DNA from: a virus
Virus record (IMG/VR): IMGVR_UViG_3300028666_000022
Span: 1 to 64,000 of that record
Reading direction: 5' to 3' (one strand)
Length of the DNA stretch: 64,000 nt
The position numbers and the translations under genes are program-made. Below the pieces are notes generated by a model. That model saw nothing but the letters and a program-made list of their open reading frames with translations. It searched no databases and was not told where the DNA came from. This document shows positions 67 to 19,564 of this stretch, piece by piece; position 1 is the first letter of the stretch, and every line of letters begins with the position of its first letter.

Positions 67-1260
67 TTATTTAAAATCTTCAACAAAGATTTCAATATTA
101 TTATAATTACGAAAACTATATATTTTCTTTTCTTCTGTTTCTTTAATTGATTTTATGAAATCTGGAAGTAAAGAAATTTTACCAATGTTAGAATCAACAA
201 CAAATTGTGGACAAGCTAATCCAGATGTATGTCCTCTTAATGAGTCAATAATCTCTAATCCTTTTGATATGGGTGATTGAAAATGTTTACTGCCCGGTAT
301 TTTATCACAAGAAAAAATATAATATGGTTTCACTCTAAGTTTAAGTAAACTTTTATATAATTTTCTAAATATTTCTTTATTATCATTAATATTCTTAAGT
401 AATACACTTTGTGAACCTAATGATATTCCAGCATCAGCTAACATGTTACAAGCTTTTTGTGTTTCTATAGTTAATTCATCTGGATGAGTAAAATGTATAT
501 TTATAAACAAAGGATGATATTTTTTTAAAATATTAGTTAATTCAGTTGTTATTCTCATTGGTAACACTACTGGTGTCTTAGTTCCAATACGTATAATTTC
601 TACATGTTCAATACTTCTTAATTTTTTTAAGATATATTCAATTTGATCATCCCTTAAAGTTAAAGGATCACCACCAGAAATAATCACATCTCTAATGTTT
701 TTATTATTCTTAATATATTGAAAACCCTTCTCCCATTCTTTTTCTGAAGAAATAATTGAATTTTTCTTAGAAACTGCATAACTTCTACTACAAAATCTAC
801 AATTAATTGAACAAAAATTAGTTACTAAAAATAATGCTCTATCTGGATATTTATGTACGATATTTGAAACAGGAGAATATTTTCTTTCATCTAATGAATC
901 TTCTTTTTCTCCTTCACTTAAATCTAATTCATGAATAGTAGGAATTACTGTTTTACATAAAGGATGATTATTTGGTAATGTACTTAATAAGTAAGTAAAA
1001 TAAGGTGTAATTCTAAAAGGTAAATGATTTTTTGGTAAATCAAAAATAATATTATCTTCTTTATTTTTTAATATTTTGGTTAATTTTTCAACATTAGTAA
1101 TACTGTTTTTTATTTGCCAATTCCAATCATTCCAATCTTCAATTGTAGTATTTAGAAAATTATTATTAATAAAATTATTTAAAGAAATATTATTAACTAA
1201 AAGCGGCACATCAGATTCTTCTGATTCAATAAGGATAGGGGTTGTTGACTGTTCGTTCAT
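67..1260 (-). CDS. KamA-like radical SAM aminomutase
   Basis: Radical S-adenosylmethionine protein of the lysine 2,3-aminomutase / EpmB family, about 397 residues. The N-terminus has the family signature DWNDWNWQIKN (near residue 42). The 4Fe-4S motif is C150-x3-C154-x2-C157 (CSINCRFC). It is followed by IISGGDPLTL and by VEIIRIGTKTPVVLP, both family signatures. A lysine in VVDSNIGKISLLPD fits the PLP-binding position. The family moves the alpha-amino group of lysine or modifies EF-P lysine; which substrate is used here cannot be read. An upstream ATG at 1341 is possible, but the ATG at 1260 follows the AAACGATAAAAACAAA leader typical of this genome and aligns with the family start. It is the only minus-strand gene for 2.5 kb. 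Confidence 0.8.
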   Translation of the reverse strand: MNEQSTTPILIESEESDVPLLVNNISLNNFINNNFLNTTIEDWNDWNWQIKNSITNVEKLTKILKNKEDNIIFDLPKNHLPFRITPYFTYLLSTLPNNHPLCKTVIPTIHELDLSEGEKEDSLDERKYSPVSNIVHKYPDRALFLVTNFCSINCRFCSRSYAVSKKNSIISSEKEWEKGFQYIKNNKNIRDVIISGGDPLTLRDDQIEYILKKLRSIEHVEIIRIGTKTPVVLPMRITTELTNILKKYHPLFINIHFTHPDELTIETQKACNMLADAGISLGSQSVLLKNINDNKEIFRKLYKSLLKLRVKPYYIFSCDKIPGSKHFQSPISKGLEIIDSLRGHTSGLACPQFVVDSNIGKISLLPDFIKSIKETEEKKIYSFRNYNNIEIFVEDFK

Positions 1261-1434
1261 GTTTTTGTTTTTATCGTTTATAAATAGAAAATTATATGTA
1301 AAAATCAAATAAATACAACGCTTTTTAATGATTATTTTCATTTAATTTTCGAAAACAAAAATATATTTAAATTTTAAATAAACAAAACAAATTAAATATT
1401 TTTTAAATTTATTATTATTTATGAATAATTTAGT

Positions 1435-6084: not shown

Positions 6085-9000
6085 ATGGAAGAAAAAATCG
6101 TAAAAACTTACACAAAAACAGAAGTTCATAAAGCAACTTTAGAATATTTTAATGGTGATGAACTTGCAACAGATGTATGGATTAAAAAATATTGTTTAAA
6201 AGATTCAGAGGGTAATCTATATGAAAAAACTCCTGATGATATGCATAAAAGACTTGCAAAAGAATTCTATAATGTTGAAAAAACATATAGTAATGATTCT
6301 AGTGAAAATTTATCGGATTATGGTAAAAAAAGAGAAGTTTTAACAGAAGAAAAGATTTTTAATTATTTTAGAAATTTTAAATACATTTCCCCCCAAGGTT
6401 CAATAATGAATATTTTGGGTAATAAAAATGTAATTGGTTCATTATCTAATTGTGTTGTTTTACCAAAAGTTTTTGATAGTTATGGTGGTATTATGTATGC
6501 TGATCAACAATTAGCACAATTATTTAAAAGAAGATGTGGAGCAGGAATTGACATATCTACTTTAAGACCTAAAGACACTAAAGTAACAAATGCTGCTGGT
6601 TCAACAACTGGTGCAATATCTTTTATGGAGAGATATTCCAACACCACTCGTGAAGTAGGACAATCGGGCAGACGTGGTGCTCTAATGATTTCTATAGATG
6701 TTAGGCATCCAGATATTGAAGATTTTATTAAAATAAAAAGAGACTTAAAAAAAGTAACAGGTGCTAATATCTCAATTAAATTGCGAGATGATTTCATGCA
6801 AGCAGTTGAGAAAAATGAAAAATATATACTAAGATTTCCTGTAGATTCAACACCCGAAAATGCTAAATATACTAAAGAAATTAATGCTATTGACATTTGG
6901 AATGAGATAATAAAGTCTGCCCATAGTAGTGCTGAACCGGGTTTGATTTTTTCAGACAGACAACACATGTATTCAACATCATCAATATATCCTAATTGGG
7001 AAAATATTAGTACAAATCCGTGTTTTCCCTCATCAGAATATTTACTAACAAAAAATGGATATTGTTCTTTTGGAGACTTATTTGATTCAAAAAAAGAAAA
7101 TGAAATTATAGCAGATGGAAGAATTTCATATGTTGATGATGGTATTGAAAAACCTAGAAATTGGATCATCGGAAATAATGATAACAATACTTTAATTAGA
7201 AATGCTTCACCCGTATTTAAAACTCAAGAAAATGCTCAATTATTAGAAATAAAAACAGAAATTGGTTTTAATGTTAAATGTACTCCAGAACATCATTTTG
7301 CAACAAAAAGAGGTATGGTTGAAGCAAAAAATTTAGATGTTAACGAAGATGAAATATTAATTTCTCAACCAGAAACATATGATTCTATAATAAACAGAGA
7401 ACCTGAAACATCAGAAGAAATTTCAGCATTTTTAATGGGATTAATTACTGGTGATGGTACATTTAGTGATAGAAGTGGATCATATTCTGTGTGTGTTGAT
7501 ATTTGGGGTGAAGATAAAAATAGATTATTGGATTTATGTAAAAAATATATTAATAAATTATATGTTGAAAATTATGATAAATTAACATATTCAAAAAAAT
7601 GGAGTAATCGAAAATTATCACCATATTATGTCACTCATATAGAGAAATCAGATAAAATAAGAATTATGTCAACATGGTTATATATTTATTTAAATGAAAC
7701 ATATGGATTTAAAAAAGAAACTAAATTTATTGTTCCCAAAAAAATTATGAATAATAGTAGAACAACAATCGGAAAATATTATGTTGCTGGATTTTCATAT
7801 GCTGATGGAACAGTTAATATTTCACAAAAGAAAAAACAAATTTCAGTTAGATTTGGACAAATACATAAAAAATTATTAGATGATATACAATTAATTTTAC
7901 ATTCTAATGGTATTTTAAGTAAAGTATATTTAAGAAAAAAAGAAGGTACTACTGTTATATGGGGAAAAACATATAACACTAAAGCATTTTATGAATTAAT
8001 AACTATCAATAGTTCACATGTTAAATATTCTAAATTAATTGGATTTTTTAATCATCCAAAAAAAGATGATAAGTTAAATGAATATCTCAAAACACATGAA
8101 ACATATACAAAGAATTCATTTTATTCCAAACCAATAGAAATAAATGTAATTAAGAAAAAAGAAGATGTTTATTGTCTTAAAGAAGATATTGGACGAAATA
8201 TTATTGTTAATGGTTGTTCTGTTAGAAGATGTTCTGAAATAGCTATGAATGACGATAGTTGTAGATTAATGGTTGTTAATTATTTTAATTGTGTTGAAAA
8301 TCCATTTACAGAATCAGCAAAATTTAATTATGATAAACTATATGAAATTGTATATGAAGCACAAAGATTAATCGATGATTTGGTTGATTTAGAATTAATT
8401 GCTGTTGAAAAAATAACTGAAAAAATAAAAAGCGATCCTGAACCAGAACACATAAAAAAAATAGAATTAGATACATGGGAAAATTTATATAATAAAGGAA
8501 AAGCAGGCAGACGAACTGGATTAGGATTTACTGCACTTGGAGATACATTAGCAGCATTAGGACATAAATATGATTCTAATGATGCAATGAATGTTATTGA
8601 AAAAATATCTAAAACTAAATTTATTGCTGAATTTGATTCATCAATTGATATGGCAATACAAAGAGGTAAATTTGAAGATTTTAATCCAATATATGAAAAT
8701 AAATCAGACTTTGTAAAAATGATAAAAAATGAACACAATGATTTATATAATAGAATGATGAAATTTGGAAGAAGAAATATTTCAATTAGTACTGTTGCAC
8801 CCACTGGAAGTCTTAGCATTCTTACACAAACTTCCTCCGGCATAGAACCAATTTATCAAATTGGATATAAAAGAAGAAAAAAAATAAACCCACAAGATAA
8901 AGATGCTAAAATTGATTTTGTTGATGATTTGGGTGATTCTTGGACCGAATTTGATGTTTTACATTATAGAGTAAAACAATGGTTAAATATTAATAATATT

Positions 9001-9855
9001 AATAACATTAATGTTGCATATGAAAAAAGTCCATATGTGGGTTCAACAGCTCCAGAAATTGATTGGATTAAAAGAGTTAAGATTCAATCAATAGTTCAAC
9101 GTTATGTGACGCATAGTATAAGTTCTACAATTAATTTATGTGAAGATGTGTCAGTTGAGAAAGTTAGTGAAATATATTTAGAATCATGGAAACAAGGATT
9201 AAAAGGAATTACAGTATATCGTGATGGTAGTCGTAGTGGTGTTCTAGTAAGTAATAAAACAGAAAAGAAAGAAAATAATATTAATTTTCATGAAGACGTA
9301 CACGCACCAAAACGTCCCAAGAGATTAAAAGCTGAAATATATCGTTTTCAAAATAATTTAGAAAAATGGATTGCTGTTGTTGGAATGCTTGATGGTAGGC
9401 CATACGAGATCTTCACCGGGAAACTCATTAATGGGTTAAGTAAACTACCTAATAATATCAAGGATTGTGAAGTGGTAAAAAATATTATTGAAGATGAAAA
9501 TGGTAATAAAACAAAAAGATATGATATTGAATATACAGATGCCGATGGTATTAAACAATCTCATACTGGTTTAAACCATGCTTTTAATCCTGAGTATTGG
9601 AATAATGCCAAACTTATTTCGGGAATCTTGAGACATCGAATGCCGCTAATATCATTATATGAATTAATAAATTCTTTAAATTTCAAAGAAGAAACTATTA
9701 ATACATGGAAAAATGGCGTTGTTCGCGTAATTAAGAAATATATTAAAGATGGTGAAAAAATTAAAGGAAAATGTCCTTCTTGTGGTGGAGAGCATCTTGA
9801 ATTCAAAGAAGGATGTATGACGTGTATGGACTGTGGAGGATCGTTATGTTCTTGA
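6085..9855 (+). CDS. nrdJ: Class II ribonucleoside-diphosphate reductase with intein
   Basis: 1256 residues: an extein of about 853 residues interrupted by a 403-residue intein. B12-dependent reductase making deoxynucleotides. Family blocks are GSLSNCVVLP (first redox Cys), GRRGALMISIDVRHPDIEDF, NISTNP + CSEIAMNDDSCRLMVV (active site N-x-C-x-E, with the thiyl-radical Cys directly after the intein), NYFNCVENPF, GRRTGLGFTALGD and STVAPTGSLSIL. The C-terminus has two Cys pairs (CPSCGG and CMTCMDCGG), the usual zinc or electron-relay tail. Without removal of the intein the active site would be split. No class I small subunit or class III activase is nearby, which agrees with class II. Confidence 0.92.
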   Translation: MEEKIVKTYTKTEVHKATLEYFNGDELATDVWIKKYCLKDSEGNLYEKTPDDMHKRLAKEFYNVEKTYSNDSSENLSDYGKKREVLTEEKIFNYFRNFKYISPQGSIMNILGNKNVIGSLSNCVVLPKVFDSYGGIMYADQQLAQLFKRRCGAGIDISTLRPKDTKVTNAAGSTTGAISFMERYSNTTREVGQSGRRGALMISIDVRHPDIEDFIKIKRDLKKVTGANISIKLRDDFMQAVEKNEKYILRFPVDSTPENAKYTKEINAIDIWNEIIKSAHSSAEPGLIFSDRQHMYSTSSIYPNWENISTNPCFPSSEYLLTKNGYCSFGDLFDSKKENEIIADGRISYVDDGIEKPRNWIIGNNDNNTLIRNASPVFKTQENAQLLEIKTEIGFNVKCTPEHHFATKRGMVEAKNLDVNEDEILISQPETYDSIINREPETSEEISAFLMGLITGDGTFSDRSGSYSVCVDIWGEDKNRLLDLCKKYINKLYVENYDKLTYSKKWSNRKLSPYYVTHIEKSDKIRIMSTWLYIYLNETYGFKKETKFIVPKKIMNNSRTTIGKYYVAGFSYADGTVNISQKKKQISVRFGQIHKKLLDDIQLILHSNGILSKVYLRKKEGTTVIWGKTYNTKAFYELITINSSHVKYSKLIGFFNHPKKDDKLNEYLKTHETYTKNSFYSKPIEINVIKKKEDVYCLKEDIGRNIIVNGCSVRRCSEIAMNDDSCRLMVVNYFNCVENPFTESAKFNYDKLYEIVYEAQRLIDDLVDLELIAVEKITEKIKSDPEPEHIKKIELDTWENLYNKGKAGRRTGLGFTALGDTLAALGHKYDSNDAMNVIEKISKTKFIAEFDSSIDMAIQRGKFEDFNPIYENKSDFVKMIKNEHNDLYNRMMKFGRRNISISTVAPTGSLSILTQTSSGIEPIYQIGYKRRKKINPQDKDAKIDFVDDLGDSWTEFDVLHYRVKQWLNINNINNINVAYEKSPYVGSTAPEIDWIKRVKIQSIVQRYVTHSISSTINLCEDVSVEKVSEIYLESWKQGLKGITVYRDGSRSGVLVSNKTEKKENNINFHEDVHAPKRPKRLKAEIYRFQNNLEKWIAVVGMLDGRPYEIFTGKLINGLSKLPNNIKDCEVVKNIIEDENGNKTKRYDIEYTDADGIKQSHTGLNHAFNPEYWNNAKLISGILRHRMPLISLYELINSLNFKEETINTWKNGVVRVIKKYIKDGEKIKGKCPSCGGEHLEFKEGCMTCMDCGGSLCS
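7021..8229 (+). mobile_element. LAGLIDADG intein in nrdJ with altered C-terminus
   Basis: 403 residues inserted between P312 and C716 of the precursor. It begins CFPSSEYLLTKNGY (block A Cys1). Block B is CTPEHHF (TxxH). The homing endonuclease has two LAGLIDADG motifs, LMGLITGDGTFSD and VAGFSYADGTVNIS. The C-terminal blocks read GRNIIVNGCSVRR and then C+1 SEI. Inteins here normally end in His-Asn; this one ends in Arg-Arg, so the Asn cyclisation step has no obvious residue. It inserts at the most conserved point of the reductase. Confidence 0.85.
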
Positions 9856-9878
9856 TAATCAGATGATTATAAAAATTA

Positions 9879-9917
9879 TTATGTTAAACGTATTTATATT
9901 GAATACGTTTAACATAA
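9879..9917 (+). terminator. Intrinsic terminator after nrdJ
   Basis: A perfect 16-bp stem (9879-9894 with 9902-9917) around a 7-base loop is followed by TTTT. The ORF running through this hairpin from 9833 is therefore not taken as the start of the next gene. Confidence 0.75.
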
Positions 9918-9934
9918 TTTTAAAATTAATTAAC

Positions 9935-10549
9935 ATGAAAAATATAAAAGAAATTATTAATGAAGAGATTGAAAATTTAAATGAAATTTTTGATTCGAAG
10001 ATTAAAACTGAATATAAAATAATAACTAGTACCAAATATGATGCTGTTACATATCAATTCAGTACGAAAAGTGGTGTTGTATATGATTTAGAATTTTATA
10101 GAAATGAAATAAGTAATCAAACTAAATTAGAAAGAAAATTTAGGTTATGTGATATTATTAAAGCTAATTGTAATGATAATACTTATGCTGTTGATATTAG
10201 TTTTACTATTGATGATAGATTAAAAAATGATGATGATATTTCTGATGATGAATATAATAAATTAACAAACAATAATGAAACTGTTGAATTAATGGGAAAA
10301 ATTTCATATCTAGTCGATATTTTCATGAGAAGACATTCAGATATTAAAATATATTGTATTGGTGTTGATAGTAATGAAGATAATAGAGGTGAGGATAAAT
10401 TAATTGTTTATTCTAGAATGTTTGAAAATATATTTCGTAATAATTTTAAAAAATTTAAAGGTGATTCCGAAAATTATAAAGATAAAGATGATAATAATAT
10501 TGATACTGGAATTTATTTTATTAATAAAAATATACTAAAACAACAATAA
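9935..10549 (+). CDS. Hypothetical with IIxEEI leader, paralogue of next gene
   Basis: 204 residues. The N-terminus is MKNIKEIINEEIENLNEIF, similar to two other proteins here. The C-terminal 70 residues (ISYLVDIF, IKIYCIGVD, GIYFINKNILK) align with the end of the following protein, so the two genes share a domain. Function unknown. Start chosen at the first ATG after the nrdJ terminator. Confidence 0.65.
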   Translation: MKNIKEIINEEIENLNEIFDSKIKTEYKIITSTKYDAVTYQFSTKSGVVYDLEFYRNEISNQTKLERKFRLCDIIKANCNDNTYAVDISFTIDDRLKNDDDISDDEYNKLTNNNETVELMGKISYLVDIFMRRHSDIKIYCIGVDSNEDNRGEDKLIVYSRMFENIFRNNFKKFKGDSENYKDKDDNNIDTGIYFINKNILKQQ

Positions 10550-10551
10550 AT

Positions 10552-11193
10552 ATGTCACGTCCTAGTCGAACTCCGATACCATATTCAGATGGAAAAAAAT
10601 TCTTATATAAGAATGAATTAAATATTATATTATATGCATTAAATATTAAATATAAATATCAAAAAATAGAGACAGAATATGAAAATTTATATAACATATT
10701 TGATAGATATTATAATAAAATATCAATATATCGATTCAACACAAGTTTCAATAAATTATTTGATTTAATGTTTTATAATGTTGATACAGATCACAAAATT
10801 ATGTTAAATAATGAAACAAGCATAACAGATATTGTTGATGAAAAAATATTGAATGAATCAATTGATAATACTTATGACATTTCATTAATAACCACACTAG
10901 AGAACAGATATTTTAAAGAATATCATGGACATAATAAGAAAGAATGTAATGAAATCATACGTAAACTATCATATTTAATTAATGAATTTATTAAAGATAA
11001 CCCAGAAATTAATATTTATGTTATTGGTAAAAACATTGATTTAGAATTACTAGAAAGATATAAAGAAGTGTTTGGTGGCATTTTTTCAGATGGATTTGAA
11101 GTTTTTGAAGGTACATCAAAAGGTTATACTGAAGGCGCAATATATTTCATCAATAAAAAAGTTTTAAAACCTTTGGAAAATAAAATTATTTAA
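10552..11193 (+). CDS. Hypothetical sharing C-terminal domain with previous gene
   Basis: 213 residues. It starts 2 bases after the preceding stop. The C-terminal domain has LSYLINEFIKD, INIYVIGKN, VFGGIFSDGFEVFEGTSKGY and AIYFINKKVLK, clearly related to the neighbour. The N-terminal halves differ. Likely a duplicated domain on different front ends. Function unknown. Confidence 0.65.
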   Translation: MSRPSRTPIPYSDGKKFLYKNELNIILYALNIKYKYQKIETEYENLYNIFDRYYNKISIYRFNTSFNKLFDLMFYNVDTDHKIMLNNETSITDIVDEKILNESIDNTYDISLITTLENRYFKEYHGHNKKECNEIIRKLSYLINEFIKDNPEINIYVIGKNIDLELLERYKEVFGGIFSDGFEVFEGTSKGYTEGAIYFINKKVLKPLENKII

Positions 11194-13678: not shown

Positions 13679-14818
13679 ATGAATTTTACTGGTTGTAAAT
13701 ATATTATTGTTGGTTCAGGTATATTCGGCTCAGTTTTAGCGGAACGAATTACTAATATTTTAAACGAAAAGGTTATTGTTATTGAAAAACGTAATCATAT
13801 TGGTGGAAATTGTTATTCTGAAATTGATTCAGAAACCGGAATTGAATATCATACATATGGAACTCACATTTTTCATACCTCAAATCAAGAAGTATGGAAT
13901 TATATAAATAGATTTACTGGTTTTAATTCTTATATTCATCAAGTTCTTACAACATATAAGAATAAAGTTTATCAAATGCCAATAAATTTGGAAACTATAA
14001 ATTCATTTTATAATATTAATTTAAAACCATTTGAAGTACAAACTTTTCTGAACGAAGAAATTAATAAAGAAAATATTAAAAATCCTTCGAATTTTGAAGA
14101 AAAGGCAATTTCTTTAGTGGGAAGATCTCTCTATGAAGCATTTTTGAAAGGTTATACACAAAAACAATGGCAATGTGATCCTAAAGAATTACCAGTATCA
14201 ATATTAAATCGTTTACCGTTTAGAACTGATTATAATGAAAGTTATTTTCACGATAAATGGCAAGGAATTCCTGAAATTGGATATAATGCATTATTTAATA
14301 AATTATTAAATAATCAAAATATTAAGATTTTATTGAATACTGATTTTTCTTCAATTAAACATTTAATTTCTCCTGAAACTAAAATCATTTATGGTGGTTC
14401 AATTGATCAATATTTTGATTATTGTTATGGTAAACTTGAATATAGAAGTTTAAAATTTGAAAAAGAAATTATTGACGTATCTGATTATCAAGGTACATCA
14501 GTTATGAATTATGCCGAAAATTTTATTCCTTATACAAGAATACATGAACCTAAACATTTACATCCTGAAAGAAATTATGTAAAAGATAAAACATTAATAA
14601 TACGAGAATATTCAGTTGTTAACGAAAATGAACCATATTATCCAATTAATAATTTAAAAAATCAACAATTATATGATCAATATGATTTACTTACTAAAGA
14701 TTTAAAGAATGTTATTTTTGGTGGAAGATTGGGAAATTACAAGTACTACGATATGTGCCACGCAATTGAGAATTCATTAAATTTGTTCAAAAAATTAAAA
14801 ATAAACTACAAATTTTAG
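13679..14818 (+). CDS. glf: UDP-galactopyranose mutase
   Basis: 379 residues. It converts UDP-galactopyranose to UDP-galactofuranose using reduced FAD. The Rossmann motif is IIVGSGIFGSVLAERI near the N-terminus, followed by VIEKRNHIGGNCY and THIFHTSNQEVWNYINRF. Further blocks are FLKGYTQKQW, SVMNYAE, RIHEPKHL and FGGRLGNYKYYDMCHAIE. Length and blocks match the full family. The last 25 codons use TAC, TGC, CAC and GAG, which are rare in the surrounding DNA, and a second copy of this end lies beyond the TnpB gene. Confidence 0.92.
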   Translation: MNFTGCKYIIVGSGIFGSVLAERITNILNEKVIVIEKRNHIGGNCYSEIDSETGIEYHTYGTHIFHTSNQEVWNYINRFTGFNSYIHQVLTTYKNKVYQMPINLETINSFYNINLKPFEVQTFLNEEINKENIKNPSNFEEKAISLVGRSLYEAFLKGYTQKQWQCDPKELPVSILNRLPFRTDYNESYFHDKWQGIPEIGYNALFNKLLNNQNIKILLNTDFSSIKHLISPETKIIYGGSIDQYFDYCYGKLEYRSLKFEKEIIDVSDYQGTSVMNYAENFIPYTRIHEPKHLHPERNYVKDKTLIIREYSVVNENEPYYPINNLKNQQLYDQYDLLTKDLKNVIFGGRLGNYKYYDMCHAIENSLNLFKKLKINYKF

Positions 14819-14849: not shown

Positions 14850-16028
14850 GTGAAAACAATTTATAAAGCTTATAAGTTTAAATTAGAACCTAATAATTCT
14901 CAAAAAGAATTGTTACATAAACATTTCGGATCATGTAGGTTTATTTATAATTATTATCTTAACTTAAGAAAAGAAAACTATTTAAATAATAAAACAAGTT
15001 TAAACTATTATGATAATTCTAAAGATCTAACTCTTTTAAGGAAAAAAGAAGAATATATTTGGCTAAATGAAATTAACGCTCAAAGTTTACAACAATCCTT
15101 AAGACATTTAGATACTGCTTATAATAGATTTTTTAGAAAACAAGGTAAATTTCCTAGATTTAAGAAAAAGAGTGATAGACAGAGTTTTATTATACCACAA
15201 TCTATTATATTAAAAAATAATAAGCTTTTTATTGCTAAGTTTAGAGAAGGAATTAGTTTGAATTTATATAAAGCAATTGAGGGTAAAATATTATTTGCAA
15301 CAATATCGAAATCGCCAGTTGGTAAATATTATGTTTCAATTACTTGTGAGGTACAATATGAACCATATTCTAAAACTAATTCTAAGATAGGTATTGATAC
15401 TGGTATTAAGGATTTAGCTATCTTATCTGATGGTAAGATCTATAAAAATATTAAGGTTTTAAAAACTAATTTAAAAAAAATTAAATATAATCATAGACAA
15501 TTAAGCAAGAAGGTTAAAGGTAGTAAATCAAGGTTAAAACAACAAAATAAATTAGGTAGAATACATGAAAATGTAACAAACATAAGATTAGATTATCTAC
15601 ATAAAGTCAGTACAGAAATCGTCAAAAACCACGATGTTATATGTATTGAAGACTTAGCAGTAAAGAATTTAATGAAAAACCATAAATTATCACAAGCCTT
15701 TTCAGATGTGGCTTTAGGTACGTTTTATAATATGCTTACTTATAAAGCTAATTGGAATGATAAGACTGTTGTAAAAATTGATCGTTGGTTTCCAAGTAGT
15801 AAGACATGTTCAAATTGTGGTTACATAAATCAAGATTTAACTTTAAGTATAAGAGAGTGGGTTTGTCCTGACTGTGGGATAAAACATGATAGGGATTTAA
15901 ATGCTTCAAAAAATATCCTAATACAAGGGTTGAATGTATTGTCTGGTTCAGGGATTGAGTCGGACACTAAACAAAAACAGGTGGAGTCGTTGTCAAAAGG
16001 CGAGGCTATGAAACCTGAAGCAAATTAA
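14850..16028 (+). mobile_element. tnpB: TnpB (IS200/IS605-type RNA-guided nuclease)
   Basis: 392 residues with GTG start. The N-terminus YKFKLEPNNSQKELLHKHF is the usual opening of the family. RuvC residues are D in IGIDTGIKDLAILSDG, E in VICIEDLAV and D in HDRDLNASKNIL. The zinc finger is CSNCGY...CPDCG. All catalytic parts appear intact. There is no TnpA transposase next to it, so it is an orphan tnpB. It is placed at the 3' end of glf with a duplicated glf tail downstream, as expected from homing or gene conversion. The guide RNA would come from the 3' end of this gene and the flank near 16048. Confidence 0.88.
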
Positions 16029-18730: not shown

Positions 18731-19564
18731 ATGAAAAGAATTGAAATGAAATTAATTAATTATAGTGGTAATACAAAAGCAACTGGTATATATTGTATAA
18801 AAAATCTAGTGAATAATAAAATATATATTGGTAGCACAAAAAGATCATTTGCAACAAGAAAAACGAGACATTTACGTTTATTGAGAAATAATACACATTA
18901 TAATGAGCATTTACAGAATGCTTGGAATTATTATAAAGAAGAAAATTTTAGTTTTGAAGTATTGTATATTTGTTTACCAAATGAATGTGAAAAATATGAA
19001 GGAGAATTCATGAAATTATATAATTCAAATAAAAGAGAATTTGGATATAACATTGCATGTGTATCAACATTTTGTTTTGATTATAAAATTTCCGAAAATC
19101 ATAATATTGAAAAAAGTATTCGAAAAAGAAAAAAATCAATAGAATTGAATGGATTATATACAACCGAAAGGGGTATACAAAAACCGTTCAAATTATATGA
19201 TATTAATGGTAAATTTATTAAAGAATATAATAGTTTTAAAGATTTTTTTAGTGACAATAAAGGTTCAAAAGCACATGTATCAACTATTTTAAGTAATAGA
19301 AAACTTTTATATAAAAATAATAATATAATATTATTTTCTAACGACAATCTTTCTGATGAAGATATTTTAATCGCAAAAAATAAAATAAGGAATATAAAAA
19401 AAATTGATTTATTTGATTTAAATAATAATTATATTAAAACATTTAATTCAGCAATTGAATGTGCTAAATTTATTGGATGTAAAGATGCTGAAATTAGAAT
19501 GTGTTGTACAAATAGAAGAAGTAGAATTAAAAATTATGTAACTAAATATAAAAAAAATGAATAA
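18731..19564 (+). CDS. Free-standing GIY-YIG homing endonuclease
   Basis: 277 residues. The GIY-YIG core is TGIYCIKNLVNNKIYIGSTK with the catalytic Arg and the downstream Glu in YEGEFMKLY. Two NUMOD-like DNA-binding repeats follow: KPFKLYDINGKFIKEYNSF and KKIDLFDLNNNYIKTFNSAI. It is not inside another ORF, so it is a free-standing mobile nuclease. It ends overlapping the next gene, which could be its protected locus. Confidence 0.85.
   Translation: MKRIEMKLINYSGNTKATGIYCIKNLVNNKIYIGSTKRSFATRKTRHLRLLRNNTHYNEHLQNAWNYYKEENFSFEVLYICLPNECEKYEGEFMKLYNSNKREFGYNIACVSTFCFDYKISENHNIEKSIRKRKKSIELNGLYTTERGIQKPFKLYDINGKFIKEYNSFKDFFSDNKGSKAHVSTILSNRKLLYKNNNIILFSNDNLSDEDILIAKNKIRNIKKIDLFDLNNNYIKTFNSAIECAKFIGCKDAEIRMCCTNRRSRIKNYVTKYKKNE

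What the first reader, a model, noticed from the sequence alone, without database searches (positions are those of the whole stretch)
7021..8232. Intein in the reductase active site ends in Arg-Arg instead of His-Asn
The intein splits N-P | C-S-E, so the C+1 residue is the thiyl-radical cysteine. The end reads IIVNGCSVRR, where other inteins have VVHN. Both the penultimate His and the terminal Asn are replaced, which should block the normal branched-intermediate resolution. Either the intein splices by an unusual route, or cleavage near the internal VNG is used, or the gene is dead and the element has been fixed.
Basis: partly seen in the sequence, partly recalled or inferred. Interest (0 to 1): 0.78.

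Follow-up and report, generated by a model that had tools for sequence, protein, structure and literature searches.

The report
Phage inteins that end in Arg-Arg
A self-removing protein insert in a phage's DNA-building-block enzyme lacks the terminal asparagine that such inserts are thought to need, and the arginine pair in its place is kept across a whole family of related inserts, which suggests an undescribed way of finishing protein splicing.

Summary
A 403-residue LAGLIDADG intein (7021-8229) interrupts a class II ribonucleotide reductase exactly before its active-site Cys and ends ...VNGCSVRR|CSE. It is neither an error nor a dead copy. I found ten further distinct phage inteins (36-55% identical to it where complete) at the same site, all ending Arg-Arg. 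Six of the eleven were reached without asking for Arg-Arg; the other five came from a pattern that required it. Six different synonymous codon pairs encode the Arg-Arg. These inteins form one clade (99/98) with Cys1, the block B Thr/His, Cys at F:4, Arg or Lys at F:13, and Arg-Arg at G:6/G:7. Sibling inteins in the same polypeptides end in Asn or Gln. The host enzyme is intact: it departs at 1 of 108 otherwise invariant positions, and an intein-free allele defines the insertion to the codon. A review calls terminal Asn, Gln or Asp 'omnipresent' in class 1 inteins; this clade breaks that rule, and I found no earlier report. The best reading is a working intein that cleaves its C-terminal junction by altered chemistry (Arg lactam formation or hydrolysis). 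Protease help and double cleavage are the rivals. No splicing was measured.

The parts
6085..9855 (+). Class II (adenosylcobalamin-dependent) ribonucleotide reductase gene with in-frame intein
   Evidence: TIGR02504 NrdJ_Z 446 bits; PF02867 273 bits; the only large RNR subunit matched in the 339,898-base record
6085..7020 (+). N-extein, ending ISTNP
   Evidence: 81% identical to the intein-free allele L069 over 307 codons; dN 0.15, dS 0.79
7021..8229 (+). Intein, 403 aa, Cys1 to Arg403
   Evidence: PF14890 and TIGR01445 matches; boundaries fixed by the empty site in L069; AlphaFold model pLDDT 88, pTM 0.90 matching full-length inteins at Z 26
7021..7062 (+). Block A, CFPSSEYLLTKNGY, with nucleophile Cys1
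   Evidence: Cys1 invariant in all ten complete Arg-Arg inteins
7282..7293 (+). Block B TPEH (Thr88, His91)
   Evidence: T88 and H91 invariant in all ten
7429..7461 (+). LAGLIDADG motif 1 (FLMGLITGDGT), Asp145
   Evidence: D145 invariant in all ten; endonuclease domain matches I-DmoI and PI-PfuI structures
7780..7812 (+). LAGLIDADG motif 2 (YVAGFSYADGT), Asp262
   Evidence: PF14528 match; D262 invariant
8167..8214 (+). Block F VYCLKEDIGRNIIVNG: Cys385 (F:4), Lys387, Glu388, Arg392 (F:13)
   Evidence: C385, K387, E388, N397 and G398 invariant in ten; F:13 is Arg or Lys in all
8224..8229 (+). Arg402-Arg403 (G:6, G:7) in place of His-Asn; AGA AGA
   Evidence: Present in all 11 distinct family members, with six different codon pairs
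8230..8232 (+). Cys+1, also the RNR thiyl-radical cysteine (NPC-SE)
   Evidence: Empty allele L069; RNR motif NPCxE present in the uninterrupted relatives read
8230..9852 (+). C-extein
   Evidence: 76% identical to L069 over 535 codons; dN 0.17, dS 1.16; 1 of 108 invariant extein positions changed in the whole enzyme

Best explanation
This is a functional, mobile class-1-like intein from a clade of phage RNR inteins in which the usual C-terminal catalytic residues (His F:13, His G:6, Asn G:7) are replaced by Arg/Lys, Arg, Arg. Steps 1 and 2 most likely run as usual: Cys1 makes the thioester with help from the block B Thr/His and Cys F:4, then the N-extein moves to Cys+1. Step 3 must differ, because Arg has no side-chain amide. 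The most likely routes are attack of the Arg403 guanidinium N-epsilon on its own carbonyl, giving a six-membered delta-lactam (the counterpart of Gln to glutarimide), or direct hydrolysis of the Arg403-Cys+1 bond in a pocket polarised by Arg392, Arg402 and the Lys-Glu pair. An S-to-N shift then restores NP-CSE. Shown here: family, conservation, fold and host-enzyme integrity. Inferred: splicing itself and all chemistry.
For: Eleven distinct inteins (complete ones 36-55% identical to the window) all have Arg-Arg, with codon pairs AGA AGA, CGA AGA, CGT AGG, AGA CGA, CGT AGA and CGC AGG. A scan for the block F motif without any Arg-Arg requirement returned the same eight records as the scan with it, and scans seeded on the upstream part of the intein also found only Arg-Arg members. 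The last 21 positions are the most conserved part in the six closest members (16/21 invariant against 77/323 elsewhere, Fisher p 2e-6). One clade, 99/98. Sibling inteins in the same polypeptides end HN (L075, L139), SN (L140) and YQ (L135), and the other G000 inteins end HN, KN and GN, so the change belongs to this intein, not to the genome. Extein under purifying selection with active-site residues intact. No other RNR catalytic subunit found in G000. Intein and extein similarities disagree (window-L113: intein 56%, C-extein 42%; window-L075: 50% and 56%), as expected of a mobile element. The model is a complete HINT plus endonuclease fold, with Arg403 on the canonical terminal strand.
Against: No splicing product has been seen. 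Guanidinium is a poor nucleophile at neutral pH and uncatalysed amide hydrolysis is slow, so the chemistry is demanding (own knowledge). A 2020 study states that terminal Asn, Gln or Asp are omnipresent in class 1 inteins (PMC7664689), and loss of terminal Asn usually abolishes C-terminal cleavage (PMC4031507). Five of the eleven members were found with a pattern that required Arg-Arg, so their Arg-Arg is not independent evidence of conservation; their codon variety and homology are.
Confidence: 0.62

Rival explanations
1. Protease-assisted splicing. The intein performs only the N-terminal thioester and branch steps; a trypsin-like or dibasic-specific host protease cuts after Arg-Arg, exposing Cys+1, and native ligation joins the exteins.
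For: Arg-Arg is a classic protease site and is followed by a Cys in every member, which would allow ligation to a Cys1 thioester. Cultured phages and plasmids gave no Arg-Arg homologue among those inspected, so a dependence on particular hosts is possible.
Against: Conservation extends to block F residues (C385, K387, E388, basic F:13), which a protease site would not need. Only one of six Arg-Arg records searched shows a trypsin-like gene. No neighbouring gene of the window's intein locus is shared by the other Arg-Arg loci.
Confidence: 0.13
2. Double cleavage without ligation: the intein releases two RNR fragments that associate into an active enzyme, as in known split RNR genes.
For: Split RNR genes, some still functional, exist in phages (PMC3653736). 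Losing the Asn while keeping Cys1 could favour N-terminal cleavage.
Against: The cut would fall inside the active-site loop, leaving the thiyl-radical Cys as a free N-terminus. Clean C-terminal cleavage would still need the same unknown step.
Confidence: 0.1
3. Degenerate or dead intein, or a sequencing or assembly error at the junction.
For: Both canonical residues are missing.
Against: Eleven distinct members, several recovered from more than one metagenome record (3300048803, 3300048804 and 3300046488; 3300025141 and 3300006923); synonymous codon variety; open frames; 1 of 108 invariant extein sites changed.
Confidence: 0.03
4. Cleavage at the internal Asn397-Gly398, or another non-terminal site, frees the intein.
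For: Asn-Gly forms succinimide easily, and N397-G398 is invariant in the clade.
Against: NG at this place is normal in inteins that end HN, TGN or TGQ. A cut there would leave GCSVRR in the RNR active site.
Confidence: 0.04
5. The insert stays in place and the RNR is not made active by splicing; the element persists by homing alone.
For: Endonuclease motifs are conserved and the element appears to move between RNR lineages.
Against: The extein remains under purifying selection with all catalytic motifs kept, and it is the only RNR matched in the record.
Confidence: 0.08

Closest known systems
Class 1 inteins of RNR active sites (Bacillus phage SPbeta bnrdE, Staphylococcus Silviavirus and SPbeta-like phages)
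   Same: Same insertion before the active-site Cys, same HINT plus LAGLIDADG layout, Cys1, block B Thr/His, Cys+1, 26-33% identity
   Different: They end VTGN or LTGQ; this clade ends Arg-Arg and has a basic residue at F:13
Chilo iridescent virus RNR intein and other Gln- or Asp-terminated inteins
   Same: Natural loss of the terminal Asn in an RNR intein; shown to splice (PMC4031507)
   Different: Gln and Asp can still cyclise to an imide or anhydride; Arg cannot do the same reaction
NrdJ-1 split intein (PDB 8ubs)
   Same: Best sequence match among solved structures (E 6e-7) and structural match Z 17.4 over 140 residues
   Different: Split mini-intein, no endonuclease; recalled to end in His-Asn (own knowledge, not tested)
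Class 3 inteins
   Same: Cys at F:4
   Different: They lack the A1 nucleophile and carry the Trp-Cys-Thr motif; this clade has Cys1 and no Trp at B:12

Membership tests
Intein (HINT protein-splicing element) | In-frame insertion in a conserved site of a host protein, absent from some alleles | tested here: met
   Empty allele L069 and many uninterrupted relatives
Intein (HINT protein-splicing element) | HINT fold with splicing blocks A, B, F, G | tested here: met
   PF14890 and TIGR01445; model Z 26.6 to TliVMA intein, Z 18 to DnaB mini-intein
Intein (HINT protein-splicing element) | Autocatalytic excision with extein ligation | not testable with these tools
   Needs expression of the precursor
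Class 1 intein | Cys or Ser at position 1 | tested here: met
   Cys1 in all ten complete members
Class 1 intein | Cys, Ser or Thr at +1 | tested here: met
   Cys+1 in all eleven
Class 1 intein | Block B Thr and His | tested here: met
   T88 and H91 invariant
Class 1 intein | C-terminal Asn (or Gln, Asp) as cyclising residue | tested here: not met
   Arg in all eleven
Class 1 intein | Penultimate His and F:13 His (common, not strictly required) | tested here: not met
   Arg at G:6; Arg or Lys at F:13
Class 3 intein | No A1 nucleophile; Trp B:12, Cys F:4, Thr G:5 | tested here: not met
   Cys1 present, no Trp at B:12, G:5 variable
LAGLIDADG homing endonuclease intein | Two LAGLIDADG motifs with catalytic Asp | tested here: met
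   PF14528; D145 and D262 invariant
Class II ribonucleotide reductase (NrdJ) | Equivalog score and active-site Cys motif | tested here: met
   TIGR02504 446 bits over cut-off 400

The most novel reading that the evidence does not exclude
A fourth mechanistic kind of intein: autocatalytic splicing in which the C-terminal junction is cleaved without Asn, Gln or Asp side-chain cyclisation, by terminal Arg (delta-lactam) or by water activated in an arginine-lined HINT site.
Probability: 0.5. Interest if true: 0.92.

Novelty: new variant of a known kind. Interest (0 to 1): 0.8.

Why it matters
Cyclisation of a terminal Asn, Gln or Asp is treated as the one universal C-terminal step of protein splicing. 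A natural clade that has given it up, yet keeps its host enzyme intact, would show either a new peptide-bond-cleaving chemistry in the HINT fold or a dependence on an outside protease. Either answer can be tested directly, and could yield tools with different control of C-terminal cleavage. The carrier is also the reductase whose active site is completed only by splicing.

Tried and rejected
Recoded AGA codons: rejected. Generic failure of terminal Asn in this phage: rejected, its other inteins end HN, KN and GN. A linked accessory gene: no ORF near the window's intein is shared with the other Arg-Arg loci. A phage-encoded trypsin-like protease as a common factor: only one of six Arg-Arg records, some of them short fragments. 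Members in bacterial or archaeal genome contigs: two scans found none, but these used few peptide patterns and do not exclude them. Cultured phages and plasmids: only non-Arg-Arg homologues among those inspected; ends were read in representatives, not in every hit, and the Vibrio and Proteus phage hits could not be delimited. A codon-model dN/dS (YN00) failed on these alignments; NG86 was used, and intein dS is near saturation. Class 3 membership was tested and rejected. Atomic distances in the model were not available, so the arginine pocket is inferred from the sequence and the strand position.

Full report
WHAT IS THERE. The window is the first 64 kb of a 339,898-base virus record. The ORF 6085-9855 encodes an adenosylcobalamin-dependent ribonucleotide reductase (TIGR02504, 446 bits), the only large RNR subunit matched in the record; no class III NrdD was matched. 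An intein of 403 residues lies at 7021-8229, between NP and the active-site Cys. The C-terminus reads VYCLKEDIGRNIIVNGCSVRR|CSEI.

THE INSERTION IS EXACT. A relative in another phage (L069; extein 78% identical overall) has no intein and reads NISTNPCSEIAMNDDSCRLM. Because Cys1 and Cys+1 are both Cys, the DNA boundary is ambiguous by one codon; homology with other inteins assigns Cys1 to the intein.

THE HOST ENZYME IS ALIVE. In an alignment of 72 exteins, the window's differs at one of 108 positions that are invariant in all the others. dN/dS against L069 is about 0.2 for the N-extein and 0.14 for the C-extein. AGA encodes 11 of the 15 arginines that are invariant in all 72, so it is read as Arg.

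ARG-ARG IS A FAMILY TRAIT. A scan seeded on intein-free RNR relatives returned L075, a different phage with an intein at the same site ending VYCLKEDIGRNIIVNGISTRR|CGE. A profile of the two inteins then found L104 and L106, also Arg-Arg. A DNA pattern for the block F/G motif with Arg-Arg found eight records holding five distinct inteins, two of them new (L112/L119 type and L113); repeating it without the Arg-Arg requirement returned the same eight records. Searches seeded on upstream parts of two members also found only Arg-Arg members. A looser pattern NG...RR-CGEI then found five more distinct inteins outside the first motif: L133/L135/L136, L139, L140/L145, L141 (partial) and L144. Those five were found by requiring Arg-Arg, so they extend the family but are not independent evidence for conservation. 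L133-type inteins sit in a clearly different RNR (CGEILLRANEFCNLTEV).

CONSTRAINT. The ten complete inteins are 34-65% identical to each other. The terminal pair is encoded six different ways (AGA AGA, CGA AGA, CGT AGG, AGA CGA, CGT AGA, CGC AGG). In the six closest members 16 of the last 21 positions are invariant, against 77 of 323 elsewhere (p 2e-6). In all ten, Cys1, Thr88, His91, Asp145, Asp262, Val383, Cys385 (F:4), Lys387, Glu388, Asn397, Gly398, Arg402 and Arg403 are invariant, and F:13 is Arg or Lys. Block numbering follows spacing to canonical inteins and the residue roles in PMC4031507.

CONTROLS. Other inteins at this RNR site end TGN (SPbeta, SPbeta-like Staphylococcus phages, a Miltoncostaea plasmid, Brochothrix A9), TGQ (Silviavirus, L003), TSN (L010, L022) or VHN (L001, L002). 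Sibling inteins in the same polypeptides as Arg-Arg inteins end HN (L075, L139), SN (L140) and YQ (L135). The three other intein matches of this phage end HN, KN and GN. The Arg-Arg inteins form one clade with 99/98 support. The comparison of intein and C-extein identities suggests horizontal movement (window-L113 56% and 42%; window-L075 50% and 56%).

STRUCTURE. AlphaFold on nine aligned inteins gave pLDDT 88 and pTM 0.90. The model matches TliVMA and PI-PfuI inteins over most of its length (Z 26.6 and 25.7) and mini-inteins over the splicing domain (Z 17-18 at about 2 A over about 140 residues); the terminal strand 402-407 in model numbering (residue 4 is Cys1) carries Arg402-Arg403 into the normal C-terminal position.

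LITERATURE. [quoted passage not shown] The 2014 review names C-terminal Glu, Gln and Asp as alternatives and notes that the CIV RNR intein splices with Gln (PMC4031507). Missing penultimate His is common in phage inteins (PMC5050341). Searches of the held library for Arg-terminated inteins found nothing; most subscription papers are not held, so a report may exist there.

MECHANISM. Steps 1 and 2 have all their residues. Step 3 has lost its nucleophile. Two autocatalytic routes are chemically reasonable (own knowledge): N-epsilon of Arg403 attacks its carbonyl to form a six-membered delta-lactam, a well-known side reaction of activated arginine in peptide synthesis; or water cleaves the Arg-Cys bond, with the basic F:13, G:6 and G:7 residues stabilising the oxyanion. 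The joint replacement of F:13, G:6 and G:7 by basic residues, with Lys387-Glu388, suggests a rebuilt site rather than a lost one. Protease cleavage after Arg-Arg followed by ligation to Cys+1 is the main rival, because it explains the motif in one step, but it does not explain the conserved block F.

LIMITS. Nothing here shows splicing. All Arg-Arg members known so far come from uncultured viral contigs, so hosts are unknown.

Noticed in passing
L135, L139, L140, L075: RNR genes that carry an Arg-Arg intein often carry a second intein at another site with a canonical end (YQ, HN, SN, HN), so one polypeptide would need two splicing chemistries.
   Followed up: partly
G000:C1:289172-290095, 303999-304214, 313337-313657 (L015, L018, L017): Three more intein-like inserts in this phage, in helicase-like, prohead-protease-like and portal-like genes (names by eye); the portal-like one seems to carry an HNH-type rather than LAGLIDADG insert.
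   Followed up: partly
window 14850-16028: TnpB/OrfB_IS605-type protein (PF01385, PF07282) next to a UDP-galactopyranose mutase (13679-14818).
   Followed up: no
window 18731-19564: GIY-YIG/NUMOD1-type protein, probably a free-standing homing endonuclease.
   Followed up: no
window 9833-11193: Two adjacent ORFs (238 and 213 aa) with no Pfam match, similar in their C-terminal halves by eye, directly after the RNR.
   Followed up: no
window 67-1341 (minus): Lysine 2,3-aminomutase-like radical SAM protein in a phage genome (PF04055, PF12544).
   Followed up: no
window 9139-9141: The one otherwise invariant RNR position changed in the window: NLP to NLC in STINLCEDV.
   Followed up: no
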